Origin: Kiritimatiellia bacterium
GTDB taxonomy: Bacteria; Verrucomicrobiota; Kiritimatiellia; PWTM01
Length of the DNA: 64,000 nucleotides
Assembly: GCA_026417735.1 (NCBI GenBank)
Contig: JAOACR010000003.1
Location: 62,001-126,000 of the forward strand
Reading direction: 5' to 3'
The position numbers and the translations under genes were made by a program. Under the pieces are notes generated by a model that saw only the letters and a program-made list of their open reading frames with translations, was not told where the DNA came from and searched no databases. This document shows positions 53,079 to 58,613 of the stretch, one piece after another; position 1 is the stretch's first letter; the number at the start of each line of letters is the position of its first letter.

Positions 53079-53245
53079 ATTCGTGTAATTTGTTTATGGG
53101 CAGGACGCGGCGCGCACTGCCGCGGTGAGGGAGGAGGGGGAATTTTCAAGTGCAACGCCGTCGTTGGGGGTCGAGGTTCGATTGGCCGCGGCTAAAGCTT
53201 GCGTTGGGTGCGCCTCGGCGCGATCGTGTTCCGGAAGGACGGTTG

Positions 53246-54121
53246 ATGAGTGACGCGCTGACACAAAAGACGGAGGCACTGAATCAGTGGCTGCGGAACG
53301 CTGGCGCGGTGGTAGTGGGATTTAGCGGAGGCGTGGACAGCACGTTTTTGGCGGTGGCAGCGGCCAGGGCGTTGGGGGCGCGAGCGCTCGCAGTGACGGC
53401 GGATTCGCCCTCATTGAAGCGGGCGGATCTCGCACTGACAAAGGAACTCGCGGCGCGGTTTTCCCTCCGGCACCGGGTCATCCGCGGTGGTGAACTGGAA
53501 AATCCCGCGTACACTGCGAACTCACCGGATCGTTGTTTCCACTGTAAAACCGACCTGTTTGAAAAACTCGTGGCGATTGCGGCTGAAGAAGGCGACGCGG
53601 TGGTGGTGGACGGTTCGAACGCTGACGATCTTCATGACTACCGGCCCGGCCGGGAGGCGGCTCGGCGTCTCGGAGTCCGCAGTCCGCTGGCGGAACTGGG
53701 GTTCACCAAAGCGGAGGTGCGGGAAGCATCGCGTCGGCTGGGGCTGCCCACCGCGGATCGGCCCGCATCGGCGTGTCTGGCCTCGCGGGTGCCGTATGGC
53801 ACGCCGGTTACGGCCGAGCTTCTGGCGCGCATCGAACGTGCGGAGTCAGTGCTGCTCGAGCTTGGCTTTCGCGTGTTGCGCGTGCGCGCGCATGGCGATG
53901 TTGCGCGGATCGAGCTGGCGACTGACGAAATCCCGAGAATGTGTGAACCGACCATCCGCCACGCGGTGGCGGCGAAGTTGCGCGCCTGCGGGTTCCGCTA
54001 TGTTGCGCTGGATCTCGATGGGTATCGGACGGGGAGTCTGAATGCCGCCATTCACCCTGTGCCGTCCGACGGGGAAACGGAGTCGATGGTTCCCGCGCCG
54101 AGGAGGTCGTCCCCGTCGTAA
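53246..54121 (+). CDS. larE: LarE-type ATP-dependent sacrificial sulfur transferase
   Basis: A 291-residue PP-loop pyrophosphatase. VVGFSGGVDSTFLAV (27-33 is the PP-loop), RCFHCKTDLF (C97, C100), GSNADDLHDYRPG and ASACLASRVPYG (C177) are characteristic of LarE. In Lactiplantibacillus LarE, the equivalent cysteine (Cys176) donates its sulfur to the nickel-pincer cofactor of lactate racemase. Partner genes larB and larC are not in the window, so another sulfur acceptor is possible. ATG 53246 follows GGAAGGAC. The 3' end overlaps mnmA convergently by 70 bases; both encode PP-loop sulfur-transfer enzymes. Confidence 0.9.
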   Translation: MSDALTQKTEALNQWLRNAGAVVVGFSGGVDSTFLAVAAARALGARALAVTADSPSLKRADLALTKELAARFSLRHRVIRGGELENPAYTANSPDRCFHCKTDLFEKLVAIAAEEGDAVVVDGSNADDLHDYRPGREAARRLGVRSPLAELGFTKAEVREASRRLGLPTADRPASACLASRVPYGTPVTAELLARIERAESVLLELGFRVLRVRAHGDVARIELATDEIPRMCEPTIRHAVAAKLRACGFRYVALDLDGYRTGSLNAAIHPVPSDGETESMVPAPRRSSPS

Positions 54122-55221
54122 ATCGCCGCGATCTGGCCGGGGGTGACGGCGAACTGGGGTTCATCGAATTCGACGAGGAATTCGTCGGGTGAGACCACGC
54201 GGATCTGGGCCGCGGCCGGCGCGTGCCGCTGCCGCACCCGGCAGGCGGCGCGAAACTCTCTTTTCGGGGGCTCTGCCCACGCGATCCAGTTGGCGCCAAC
54301 TGCCGTGAGGCGCCCCGCGAGCACGTCGGTGCGCCGGCCGACCACGACTCGGTTCTCCGCCGGCTCCAACCGAACCACATACCACGGCTCTCCTGTGCCA
54401 CCAAGGCCGAGGCCTCGCCGCTGCCCCACTGTGTAGTGGACCAGGCCGCGGTGACGGCCCACCACTCGGCCCTGAAGGTCCACGATGTCGCCGGGGCGCG
54501 AGTCTGTCGGATCGAACAGGTCGGTATACCTGGCGGACTCCAGAAAATCCTGGCTCTCCGGCGTACGCGCGAGGGCTTCGAAGCCGGCTGCCGCGACGAT
54601 CTCACGCACCTGGTCCTTCCCCAATGAGCCCAGCGGCAGCAACAGCCCCCTGAGCTGTTCCTGCGTCGCGAGCGCGAGGAAGTACGATTGATCCTTTCCC
54701 TCGTTCGCGGCGCGGAACAAATGGATCCGGCCAGTGGTCCCGTCCGGCCGAAGGCGTGCGTAGTGGCCGGTCGCAAAACGGTCGAACGCAATTCCCGCCT
54801 GGCGCGCGGCCTCGAGCAGTCGGCCGAGCTTCACACGCCGGTTGCACCAGACGCATGGGTTCGGAGTGCGCCCCCGGCGGTACTCCGCGCGGACATATTC
54901 GAGAACATCTCGCTGGTAATCCGAGGCGAGCGAGACTTCGTGCAAGGGAATGCCCAAACGGGCGGTGAATTCGCGGAGGCGCTGAAGGTCACGCACCTCG
55001 CCCGGGCCGTAGCAACCCGAACGTCCGCTCTCGCGGATCTGCACCGCGCCATCCCAGATCCGCATCGTCAGACCGACCACCTCGAAGCCAGCGGCCGCCA
55101 GCAACAGTGCGGTCGCGGATGAGTCCACCCCGCCGCTCAGACCCACCGCGATCCGTTCGCTGGCTCGGACGCGCGCAAGTTCGAGCTGTACCTCAAGGGG
55201 GAGCGCAATGGTCACCCGCAT
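54052..55221 (-). CDS. mnmA: tRNA 2-thiouridylase MnmA, variant active site
   Basis: A 389-residue enzyme expected to thiolate U34 of Lys, Glu and Gln tRNAs. The PP-loop GLSGGVDSS is at 27-35, the nucleophilic cysteine motif is in NPCVWCNRRVK (C123, C126), FATGHYARL follows, GKDQSYFLA is at about 175-183, and a C-terminal beta domain includes YTVGQRRGLG. The second catalytic Cys, normally in an ESQD-x-C motif, is replaced: residues 222-227 read ESQDFL. An additional Cys occurs in SGCYGPGE (C70), giving a different cysteine set. ATG 55221 agrees with the family start; the frame continues upstream without homology. Confidence 0.9.
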   Translation of the reverse strand: MRVTIALPLEVQLELARVRASERIAVGLSGGVDSSATALLLAAAGFEVVGLTMRIWDGAVQIRESGRSGCYGPGEVRDLQRLREFTARLGIPLHEVSLASDYQRDVLEYVRAEYRRGRTPNPCVWCNRRVKLGRLLEAARQAGIAFDRFATGHYARLRPDGTTGRIHLFRAANEGKDQSYFLALATQEQLRGLLLPLGSLGKDQVREIVAAAGFEALARTPESQDFLESARYTDLFDPTDSRPGDIVDLQGRVVGRHRGLVHYTVGQRRGLGLGGTGEPWYVVRLEPAENRVVVGRRTDVLAGRLTAVGANWIAWAEPPKREFRAACRVRQRHAPAAAQIRVVSPDEFLVEFDEPQFAVTPGQIAAIYDGDDLLGAGTIDSVSPSDGTG

Positions 55222-55359
55222 GGAGCGAACATAGGCTCCCAGGTGGTCGCACGCAAGGCGGGTCGGGCGGTGTCCGCCGCCGGAGGTCGGTGGGCCGCCG
55301 CTGATGTAGAACGACGAATGGGAGCGCTGCAGATTGTCCGAAGGTTCGGGCACAGGCAT

Positions 55360-55388
55360 TTGACAGAACGGGGAAGGATGAGTAAGGT
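55360..55388 (+). promoter_or_regulatory. Putative sigma-70 promoter of rpoD
   Basis: A perfect TTGACA (55360-55365), a 17-base spacer and TAAGGT (55383-55388; T1, A2 and T6 of the -10 matched). Transcription would begin near 55395, about 43 bases before the rpoD ATG. This is the best -35 hexamer noticed in the window and would give autoregulation of the housekeeping sigma factor. Confidence 0.45.
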
Positions 55389-55437
55389 GTAGGGCCCGCG
55401 TTACAATGGGACGATTGTGTCCCAGCACGAGGAGAGC

Positions 55438-57258
55438 ATGGCAAGCCATCGAAAGGAACGTTCACAATCGGCTCGTCCGCATGATACTCGGCCGGCAACT
55501 TCGGATGCGAAGGAGGGAGCCCACAGCATGTCCGGGACGGCGTCACCCGCCGTCAACGAGACCCCCCCAGTGGTGGCGGCGCAGGTGAGGGGGACGGCCG
55601 CCGGCAGCGATGTTGTGCCGGCGGGAAAGATGGACCGCGAAACCCGCAATCAGAAGATCAAGGAACTAATCTCGCTGGCGAGCGAGCAGGGAGGCTATCT
55701 GACCTACGAGGACATCAACGACGCGCTGCCGGAAAGTTGCGTGAGCGCCGCGGAGCTCGACAGCCTGCTGATGATGTTCCGGAGCATGGACATTGATGTC
55801 ATCAGCGCATCCGAGGTGGACAAGTACAAGATGCAGGAGGCCGAGAGCCGCGCCCGCCACGCACAGCGTGCGGACGTGCTCGACGATCCGGTACGGATGT
55901 ACTTGAAGCAGATGGGGCAGGTGCAGCTCCTCACCCGGGAACAGGAAGTCGAAATTTCCAAGCGCATCGAAGAGGCGGAGCTAAAGAGCCGCCAGCTTTT
56001 CTGCCAGTTCGGCTTTGCGGTTCGCGCGTTCCTGGAGATTGCGGAGAGGCTCGAACAGGGTCGGGAACGGTTCGACCGCGTGGTGAACGATAAGCTCGCG
56101 AAAAGCCGTGAGCGCTATCTGAAACGTCTCCCCGCGCTCCGGGAGGCGGTCGCCCGTGCCCACCGGGCTGCGCTGCAAAGCTTCGATCGGTGGATGCAAA
56201 TGCGCAGGCGTTCGAAATCTGCGGACGCGGCGGGGCGGCAGGCCTTTGAGCGGGTCCGGCGCCAGGTCGAGGAGCTGTTGGAGAAGTTCTGTTTCAAGCA
56301 AAAGGCAATAGAGGACTGTGTCGTCGTTGCGGACGAGGTTCACGCGCAGTTTCGCGAAGCGTCGCGCGCGGTGGAGGCCTGGCGTGAGCGCGCGCGCGGC
56401 CGGTCCGCCCCGCCCGCGGTCACGGAGGCGATGGAGCGGCTGGAGGCGATTGCGCGGGACGCGCTGGTGCCCGCCGATGAGTTTGAGGCGCGGTATCAGG
56501 AGTTCAAGACCTGGATGCGAAACGCGCAGCGCGCGAAATCGGAAATGGTGGAAGCGAACCTGCGGCTGGTGATCAGCATCGCCAAGAAATACACAAATCG
56601 CGGCCTGTCGTTCCTGGATTTGATTCAGGAGGGGAACATGGGCCTGATGAAGGCGGTGGAAAAATTCGAATACCGCCGGGGCTACAAGTTCAGCACCTAT
56701 GCGACGTGGTGGATCCGGCAGGCGATCACCCGTTCGATCGCGGACCAGGCGCGGACGATCCGCATTCCCGTGCACATGATCGAAACGATCAACAAGCTGA
56801 TGCGGGTGCAAAAACAGTTGCTGCAGGAGTACGGCCGAGAGCCGACCCCCGAGGAGCTGGCGGAGGAGATGAACCTTCCGGTGGAGCGCGTGCGCGGCAT
56901 TCTGAAGATTGCGCAACAGCCGATCTCGTTGCACAGCCCCGTTGGCGACAGCGACGACACCAGCTACGGCGACTTCATCGCGGACACCAGCGCGGAGGAT
57001 CCTGCGAACGTCACCGCGCAGGCGATGCTGAAGGAGCGGCTGCGGGAAGTGATGCAGACCCTCACCGAGCGCGAGCAGGAGGTGTTGAAACTCCGGTTTG
57101 GCCTGGTGGACGGTTATTCCCGCACACTAGAAGAGGTGGGGCGCAAGTTCCGCGTCACGCGCGAGCGAATCCGGCAGATCGAGGCGAAGGCGCTGCGCAA
57201 GATGCGGCACCCAACGCGCATCCGCAAGCTCGAGGGCTTCCTGGAGAGCCGGCCCTGA
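55438..57258 (+). CDS. rpoD: RNA polymerase primary sigma factor
   Basis: A 606-residue housekeeping sigma factor. Region 1.1 is present ([24 protein letters not shown], about 75-98), as is region 1.2 ([22 protein letters not shown]). A long non-conserved insert (about 190-360) is followed by regions 2.1-2.4 ([51 protein letters not shown]). Region 3 includes HMIETINKL, and region 4 includes [16 protein letters not shown] and [15 protein letters not shown]. Retention of region 1.1 and the insert marks it as RpoD rather than an alternative factor. ATG 55438 has GAGG five bases upstream; GTG 55417 is an alternative. A kinase gene follows after five bases. Confidence 0.97.
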
Positions 57259-57263
57259 CCACT

Positions 57264-58613
57264 GTGCCGACATCCGCCTCGCCGCCCCGGCGAGTTGTGA
57301 AACGCGACGGTCAGGTCGTCCCCTACGACCGCGATCGGATCGAGACCGCGATTCTGCGCGCGCTCGCGTCGCTGGGACAGGGCGACCGATCCGTCGCCGC
57401 CATGCTGGCGCAGCAGGTGGAAGAGATGCTGGCCGCCGCGTACGGGCCGGCCGCCGCCCCGACGGTCGAGGACATTCAGGACATCGTGGAACGGGTGCTG
57501 ATGATGTCCGGCCGCGCCGAGGCCGCCCGCGCGTACATCATTTATCGGCACGAGCGCGCCCGGCTGCGCGACGCACGCGCGCGGCGGATCGAGGCGACCG
57601 ACAACATTCCGTACCGCGTCATTTACGAAGTTCTCCGCTGGAATCTCGACCACGAATGCGCCAGCATCGCGGATTTGAACCGCCGCATTGCAGAGGGGCG
57701 GTACGCGGAGCTGGTTCGCGATGCGGAGGCGCGGTACGAGGCGGAAGTGCGGACTGCGGCCAGCCGCATCATCGAGCGGCGGGCCGACGTGCGGTTGGTT
57801 ATCGTCGCCGGGCCCTCCTCGTCGGGCAAAACAACGACCACGATCAAGCTGTCGGAGCATCTGGCGGCGGCGGGACTAAAGCTGCGCGCGCTCAATCTGG
57901 ACAACTACTTTTTCGATCTGGAGCAGCACCCGCGCGACGAGTTCGGCGATTACGACTATGAAACGCCGCAGGCGCTCGACATTGAGCTGATCAACCGCCA
58001 TTTGACCGAACTGCTTGCGGGCCGTGAAATCCAGGTCCCGCGGTACGACTTCAAGACGGGCCGGCGAACCCTGAACGTTTCGTCGATGCGGCTCGAACCG
58101 GATGAGCTGCTGCTGTTGGACAGCCTGCATGGTTTGTACGGGCCGATGACCAGCTCCGTGCCGGCGGAACGGAAGTTTCGGGTCTACATCGAAACGCTCG
58201 AGCAGATCCGCAACGCGCACGGAGAGTTTCTGCGTTGGGCGGATCTCCGCATGATGCGTCGCATGGTGCGCGACGCGTGGCATCGGAACCACCGCCCGCT
58301 GGAAACCATTACGCATTGGCACTACGTGCGGGCGAGCGAGCTGAAGTACATCATCCCGTTCATCAGTGAGGTGGACTTCATCGTGAACAGCGCATTGCCG
58401 CATGAGCTGCCGATTCTGAAACCGCGGGTATGGCATGTGCTGCCGGAAGCGATCCGCGTCTGTCGAGACGAGCCACGCCGACAGGACGCGTATCTGCGGG
58501 CGAAGCGCCTGTACGAGTGGTTGGAGCCCTTAACGCCGATCGAGTCGGACGAGGCGATTCCGTCCCGCTCGCTGCTGCGCGAATTTATCGGCGGCAGTTC
58601 GTACGACTACTGA
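57264..58613 (+). CDS. ATP-cone fused to a uridine-kinase/PRK-type nucleoside kinase
   Basis: A 449-residue two-part protein. Residues 10-104 form an ATP-cone, the nucleotide-sensing domain of ribonucleotide reductases and NrdR (VVKRDGQVVPYDRDRIETAI; PTVEDIQDIVERVLM; AEAARAYIIYRHER). A P-loop kinase of the uridine kinase/phosphoribulokinase type follows, with Walker A GPSSSGKTTT (183-192), LNLDNYFFD, DYDYETPQALDIELI and RYDFKTGRR. The cone probably tunes kinase activity to ATP/dATP level; this is inference. It starts with GTG five bases after the rpoD stop without a good ribosome site, suggesting reinitiation. The substrate is unknown. Confidence 0.8.
   Translation: MPTSASPPRRVVKRDGQVVPYDRDRIETAILRALASLGQGDRSVAAMLAQQVEEMLAAAYGPAAAPTVEDIQDIVERVLMMSGRAEAARAYIIYRHERARLRDARARRIEATDNIPYRVIYEVLRWNLDHECASIADLNRRIAEGRYAELVRDAEARYEAEVRTAASRIIERRADVRLVIVAGPSSSGKTTTTIKLSEHLAAAGLKLRALNLDNYFFDLEQHPRDEFGDYDYETPQALDIELINRHLTELLAGREIQVPRYDFKTGRRTLNVSSMRLEPDELLLLDSLHGLYGPMTSSVPAERKFRVYIETLEQIRNAHGEFLRWADLRMMRRMVRDAWHRNHRPLETITHWHYVRASELKYIIPFISEVDFIVNSALPHELPILKPRVWHVLPEAIRVCRDEPRRQDAYLRAKRLYEWLEPLTPIESDEAIPSRSLLREFIGGSSYDY

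What the first reader, a model, noticed from the sequence alone, without database searches (positions are those of the whole stretch)
57264..58613. ATP-cone fused to a uridine-kinase-type enzyme directly behind rpoD
ATP-cones normally regulate ribonucleotide reductase or NrdR. Here a full cone precedes a P-loop nucleoside kinase, suggesting allosteric control of salvage by ATP/dATP. The gene begins five bases after the housekeeping sigma factor with no ribosome site, so its synthesis would follow RpoD.
Basis: partly seen in the sequence, partly recalled or inferred. Interest (0 to 1): 0.6.

Follow-up and report, generated by a model that had tools for sequence, protein, structure and literature searches.

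The report
ATP-cone fused to uridine-kinase-like enzyme
A bacterial gene next to the main sigma-factor gene joins a domain that normally lets cells sense ATP and dATP for DNA-precursor synthesis to a small-molecule kinase; the pairing is conserved in many relatives and seems undescribed, but what the kinase acts on is unknown.

Summary
Window 57264-58613 (+) encodes 449 aa: an intact ATP-cone (Pfam 78.9 bits, residues 10-99) followed by a PRK/uridine-kinase-type P-loop kinase (59.4 bits, residues 180-376). The GTG start lies 5 nt after the rpoD stop, without a well-placed ribosome site. It is not an isolated curiosity: about 80 species genomes carry the fusion at 53-89% identity. It occurs in 52 of about 97 sampled genomes of the window's class (Kiritimatiellia) and in none of about 190 others in the phylum. 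The residues checked against solved two-dATP cones, including the nucleotide ligands, are invariant or mostly conserved. The kinase's P-loop lysine and catalytic Asp are invariant, but the uridine/cytidine-recognition position is an invariant Gly. The nearest family with a tested member, the TGS/ThrRS-type 'nucleoside kinase', showed no uridine kinase activity in Thermotoga. So 'adenine-nucleotide-gated kinase' is well supported as a prediction; 'uridine salvage' is not. rpoD is directly upstream in about 70% of loci, but many have their own ribosome sites, so strict translational coupling is local. A new combination of known parts. The literature held here describes the ATP-cone as essentially restricted to RNR and NrdR.

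The parts
57264..58613 (+). ATP-cone-kinase gene, 449 aa, GTG start, TGA stop
   Evidence: homologues in about 80 species genomes
57291..57560 (+). ATP-cone domain (residues 10-99)
   Evidence: Pfam PF03477, 78.9 bits; K13, R14, Y94, R98, R102, D73-R95 conserved
57561..57791 (+). helical connector (about residues 100-176); from residue 117 on homologous to the region in front of the kinase in TGS-type nucleoside kinases
   Evidence: AlphaFold helices 111-171; matches to the paralogue start at residue 117
57801..58391 (+). PRK/uridine-kinase-type P-loop kinase domain (residues 180-376); P-loop GPSSSGKTT 183-191, catalytic Asp D213
   Evidence: Pfam PF00485, 59.4 bits; TthUCK/UCK alignment; Foldseek top hits UCK2 and TthUCK
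58392..58610 (+). C-terminal helical region ending in LREFIGGSxYxY, shared with TGS-type kinases, absent from the canonical Udk compared
55417..57258 (+). rpoD, housekeeping sigma factor, directly upstream (5 nt gap)

Best explanation
A P-loop small-molecule kinase whose activity is gated by the adenine-nucleotide pool. The N-terminal ATP-cone is of the type that binds two ATP or two dATP tail to tail and pairs with a second cone through its last two helices. Binding of dATP (or a change in the ATP:dATP ratio) would change the oligomeric state and so switch the kinase domain, which phosphorylates a hydroxyl of a nucleoside-like or ribosyl metabolite with ATP. Shown here by sequence: both domains, conserved ligands, conserved catalytic residues, conserved rpoD (in some loci cvpA-dnaG-rpoD) linkage. 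Inferred: nucleotide binding, oligomerisation, direction of control. Unknown: the substrate; classical uridine/cytidine specificity is doubtful.
For: Cone: K13, R14, Y94 and R102 are invariant in 61 homologues and R98 is R in 55 of 61; they align with Lys7, Arg8, Tyr83, Arg91 and Arg87 of PcNrdD, and R102 with LbNrdB Arg102, all dATP contacts or charge-compensating neighbours. The cone-cone interface positions of LbNrdB (Met80, Ile92, Ile93, Lys89 and the Asp73-Arg95 salt bridge) are kept as M/I80, I92, mostly hydrophobic 93, R/K89, D73 and R95. The nearest solved cones are exactly the two-dATP cones 5OLK, 5IM3, 8P23. Kinase: P-loop K189 and T190-T192, D213, Y215, Y261, F263, R332/R333/R336/D337 invariant (G188 is Ser in 11 of 61). 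Model pLDDT 89 and Foldseek hits to UCK2/TthUCK. One clade (support 98/94) apart from the TGS-type kinases. In about 20 carrier genomes the only two detectable ATP-cone genes are an NrdR-sized ORF and this kinase, while the PF02867 reductase matches lie in other ORFs; two of those were read and are NrdJ-like without a cone.
Against: No nucleotide binding or kinase assay was found for this family. A tested member of the nearest kinase family (T. maritima TmUK) made no UMP and showed only ATPase activity with uridine, so the domain may not be a nucleoside kinase at all. P. aeruginosa NrdA has a second cone that does not bind nucleotide, so a cone fold alone proves nothing.
Confidence: 0.55

Rival explanations
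1. It is a true pyrimidine (ribo)nucleoside salvage kinase (uridine/cytidine to UMP/CMP), inhibited by dATP or activated by ATP.
For: Best profile matches of the kinase half are uridine kinases. The own genome has no canonical udk (only two PRK-family genes), no dNK match, and no thymidine kinase match, so a salvage kinase slot is open.
Against: 81-88 bits against equivalog cut-offs of 180-220. The base-recognition position is invariant Gly266 and Walker-B Glu-Gly is Asp-[Ser/Cys]. The related TmUK showed no UK activity.
Confidence: 0.2
2. It is a nucleotide-sensing ATPase or RNA/translation-linked regulator: the kinase fold acts as a switch and the cone reports the dATP pool to the dnaG-rpoD expression unit.
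For: TmUK (ThrRS-type N-terminus plus the same kinase type) hydrolysed ATP in the presence of uridine without making UMP, and its authors favour a regulatory role. Linkage to rpoD and, in 16 loci, to cvpA-dnaG-rpoD.
Against: Phosphate-acceptor-side residues are as invariant as the P-loop (D213, D231, E233, R332-D337), as expected of an enzyme with a specific acceptor. No RNA-binding domain was found in the cone version.
Confidence: 0.17
3. The cone is only a structural/oligomerisation module that no longer responds to nucleotides; the kinase is constitutive.
For: Non-binding cones are known (second cone of P. aeruginosa NrdA).
Against: The ligand residues K13, R14, Y94 and R102 are among the dozen or so invariant cone positions in 61 sequences.
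Confidence: 0.08

Closest known systems
ATP-cone of class I/III ribonucleotide reductases (LbNrdB 5OLK, PaNrdA 5IM3, PcNrdD 8P23)
   Same: Same domain, N-terminal, same two-nucleotide ligand set and same self-association helices
   Different: Attached to a P-loop kinase, not to a reductase subunit
NrdR transcriptional repressor
   Same: Contains an ATP-cone; encoded elsewhere in the same genome
   Different: No zinc ribbon or DNA-binding part here; an enzyme domain instead
TGS/ThrRS-type 'nucleoside kinase' (Bacteroides WP_022275667, T. maritima TmUK; own-genome paralogue G000:C9:232838)
   Same: Homologous over residues 117-449 including the C-terminal LREFIG motif, about 29-41% identity
   Different: N-terminal TGS plus ThrRS-like part replaced by an ATP-cone; Walker-B EG to D[SC]; family-specific H222, R324-W325, H351, Y354
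Uridine-cytidine kinase (Udk/UCK; TthUCK 3ASY, UCK2)
   Same: P-loop kinase fold, catalytic Asp, Tyr/Phe of the acceptor pocket
   Different: Base-recognition His/Tyr is Gly266; extra N- and C-terminal domains; under NCBIfam cut-offs
Archaeal 2-phosphoglycerate kinase with ATP-cone (remembered from Aravind, Wolf and Koonin 2000; paper not held)
   Same: Precedent for a cone on a P-loop kinase (from memory; one search shows only that the two papers are cited side by side)
   Different: No 2-phosphoglycerate-kinase model among the NCBIfam matches listed

Membership tests
ATP-cone domain (PF03477) | Profile match over the curated cut-off across the whole domain | tested here: met
   78.9 bits against 25.8, positions 2-87 of 88
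ATP-cone domain (PF03477) | Nucleotide ligands of the two-dATP cones present | tested here: met
   K13, R14, Y94, R102 invariant, R98 in 55 of 61
ATP-cone domain (PF03477) | Binds ATP/dATP and changes oligomeric state | not testable with these tools
   needs protein
PRK/uridine kinase superfamily (PF00485) | Profile match, Walker A, catalytic Asp, fold | tested here: met
   59.4 bits against 22; invariant residues; Foldseek E about 1e-8 to UCK2
Uridine kinase, equivalog (TIGR00235 / NF004018) | Score over the equivalog cut-off | tested here: not met
   80.7 against 220.3 and 88.1 against 180 bits
Uridine kinase, equivalog (TIGR00235 / NF004018) | Pyrimidine-recognition His/Tyr (UCK2 His117, TthUCK Tyr93) | tested here: not met
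   Gly266 in 61 of 61 by alignment to 3asy/3w8r
TGS/ThrRS-type nucleoside kinase | Homologous kinase plus C-terminal region | tested here: met
   residues 117-449, about 29-41% identity
TGS/ThrRS-type nucleoside kinase | N-terminal TGS and ThrRS-like region | tested here: not met
   replaced by ATP-cone; separate clade, support 98/94
2-phosphoglycerate kinase (archaeal) | Match to its family model | tested here: inconclusive
   none among the 25 NCBIfam matches listed (E up to 0.17), but whether that library holds such a model was not checked

The most novel reading that the evidence does not exclude
A dATP/ATP-gated metabolic kinase in which the allosteric switch of DNA-precursor synthesis sits on an enzyme other than the reductase: in many Kiritimatiellia with a cone-less class II-type reductase, the only cone-bearing enzyme detected is this kinase, encoded next to rpoD (in some lineages cvpA-dnaG-rpoD), linking dNTP status to the transcription/replication gene set.
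Probability: 0.3. Interest if true: 0.8.

Novelty: new variant of a known kind. Interest (0 to 1): 0.57.

Why it matters
[quoted passage not shown] A conserved cone-kinase present in half of a bacterial class would extend dATP allostery to a different enzyme fold, show that the switch works on an unrelated catalytic domain, and give a simple soluble system (one 449-aa chain with a cone and a kinase) to study how cone oligomerisation transmits control. It also offers a handle on the function of the widespread but unassigned 'nucleoside kinase' family.

Tried and rejected
Viral contigs: no relative. Plasmids: only TGS-type or canonical kinases, no cone fusion. Archaeal 2-phosphoglycerate kinase: no such model among the NCBIfam matches listed. 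Thymidine kinase and deoxynucleoside kinase were checked to see whether another salvage kinase fills the role: none in the own genome. Conserved neighbours other than rpoD/dnaG/cvpA were sought as substrate clues; an AMP-binding (acyl-CoA-synthetase-type) gene follows in about 10 loci and ArgS lies nearby in about 10, but nothing points to a substrate. Promoter/terminator scan: one weak promoter-like site near the start of rpoD and nothing at the junction. Ten paper searches: no description of a cone-uridine-kinase fusion.

Full report
What is there. The ORF at window 57264-58613 (+) is real and full length: 449 aa, GTG start, TGA stop. Pfam finds an ATP-cone over residues 10-99 (78.9 bits, cut-off 25.8) and the phosphoribulokinase/uridine kinase family over residues 180-376 (59.4 bits, cut-off 22). 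The gene upstream is rpoD, ending at 57258; five bases (CCACT) separate its TGA from the GTG, and the nearest GGAG ends about 17 nt before the start. Only one weak promoter-like site was found in the region, near the start of rpoD, and no terminator at the junction. The AlphaFold model built on 61 homologues has mean pLDDT 89; Foldseek puts the kinase with human UCK2 and Thermus UCK and also finds the cone-bearing NrdB 5OLK.

How widespread. A scan of species genomes returned the 80 best relatives, all essentially full length at 53-89% identity, nearly all labelled Kiritimatiellae, Lentisphaerae, Verrucomicrobia or unnamed PVC MAGs; two come from one Ozemobacteraceae MAG (L088, L094), near-identical to each other, possibly contamination or transfer. 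Among 289 sampled genomes of the phylum, 52 carry the full fusion, all of them in the window's own class (about 97 genomes sampled); none of about 190 others do. These counts were made by hand from the table. The fusion kinases form one clade (support 98/94) apart from the TGS-type kinases.

Is the cone functional? Aligning to solved dATP-bound cones, the residues named as phosphate or base neighbours in PcNrdD (Lys7, Arg8, Tyr83, Arg87, Arg91; PMC11226230) fall on K13, R14, Y94, R98 and R102 of this protein; L. blandensis NrdB Arg102 (the gamma-phosphate contact; PMC5794259) also falls on R102 (the numbering offsets, 4 and 3 residues of tag, were worked out by hand). Four of the five are invariant in 61 homologues; R98 is Arg in 55. 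The internal salt bridge Asp73-Arg95 of NrdB is invariant here (D73, R95), and the cone-cone contact positions (Met80, Ile92, Ile93, Lys89) are kept as M/I, I, mostly I/L and R/K. This makes it look like a two-nucleotide cone of the kind that self-associates. Binding and oligomerisation are inferred, not shown.

Is the kinase functional, and on what? The P-loop (GPSSSGKTT, 183-191; G188 is Ser in 11 of 61, the rest invariant), D213, Y215, D231, E233, D239, Y261, F263, R332, R333, R336, D337 and R341 are invariant. But the position that recognises the pyrimidine base in uridine-cytidine kinases (His117 of UCK2; residue 93, Tyr or mutant His, of Thermus UCK: numbering and role from established knowledge of these enzymes) is Gly266 in all 61, and the Walker-B Glu-Gly is Asp-[Ser/Cys]. 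NCBIfam uridine kinase models match far below their cut-offs. The nearest kin are the 'nucleoside kinases' of about 550 aa with an N-terminal TGS plus ThrRS-like part (about 29-41% identity over residues 117-449); the own genome has one at C9:232838 and no third PRK-family gene. A tested member of that family, TmUK of Thermotoga maritima, formed no UMP, full length or truncated, and showed ATPase activity with uridine (PMC10248530). So the substrate is open. The own genome also lacks dNK and thymidine kinase matches, and canonical-length Udk is found in only about a dozen of 112 class genomes, which leaves room for an unconventional salvage kinase but does not show one.

Link to rpoD. In 54 of 76 loci with enough upstream DNA, rpoD lies upstream on the same strand, directly so in 53 (one, L046, has another gene between); 31 gaps are at most 20 nt and 44 at most 60 nt (starts were chosen by rule, so single gaps are approximate). 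In 16 loci cvpA and dnaG also lie upstream on the same strand, giving cvpA-dnaG-rpoD-kinase (Pfam identities), i.e. the kinase hangs on the macromolecular synthesis gene cluster. Many orthologues have a GGAG/AGGA motif in front of their start, so the coupling inferred from this window is not general. The loci are related, so the counts are not independent; the retention is still much stronger than for any other neighbour.

Other cones in the genome. The own genome has NrdR (C9) and an NrdD-like class III reductase with two cones (C6), and a PF02867 reductase on C14 without a cone match. In about 20 carriers of at least 90% completeness the two PF03477 matches are an NrdR-sized ORF and the kinase only (read by hand; the match list was cut), while 25 of 26 genomes examined have a PF02867 reductase; two of these were read in full and are about 970-990 aa, NrdJ-like, without a cone at the N-terminus. 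This is an observation, not a test of exclusion: class II reductases rarely have cones anyway (PMC11226230).

Known or new. In the open-access library no paper describes a cone fused to a uridine-kinase-type enzyme, and a 2024 paper calls the cone essentially restricted to RNRs and NrdR. From memory, the 2000 paper that defined the cone already listed an archaeal 2-phosphoglycerate kinase, so a cone on a P-loop kinase has a precedent; that was not verified. Domain databases probably list this architecture automatically. I therefore call it a new variant of a known kind: known domains in a combination that appears undescribed, conserved across much of a class, with a testable allosteric prediction and an open substrate.

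Noticed in passing
G000:C9:232838-233812 (locus L105:634-2319): Paralogous TGS/ThrRS-type nucleoside kinase in the same genome; its family also has Gly at the pyrimidine-recognition position in most members.
   Followed up: partly
G000:C6:28829-29452 (locus L003): NrdD-like anaerobic ribonucleotide reductase with two tandem ATP-cones.
   Followed up: partly
class genomes, e.g. G018, G095, G281: Carriers in which the reductase appears cone-less and only an NrdR-sized ORF and the kinase bear cones.
   Followed up: partly
L088 and L094: Two nearly identical cone-kinase loci in one Ozemobacteraceae MAG, nested on a long branch within the Kiritimatiellia clade: transfer or bin contamination.
   Followed up: no
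G010:C77:3549-4859: Cone-kinase copy with one in-frame TAA, the most diverged of the class hits (50% identity): pseudogene or sequencing error.
   Followed up: no
window 53150-55449: larE (sulfur transferase) and mnmA (tRNA thiolase) in convergent orientation just upstream of rpoD, partly overlapping at their 3' ends as called (53150-54121 + and 54052-55449 -).
   Followed up: no
116 class genomes: Thymidine kinase (PF00265) virtually absent from the class: five weak matches.
   Followed up: no
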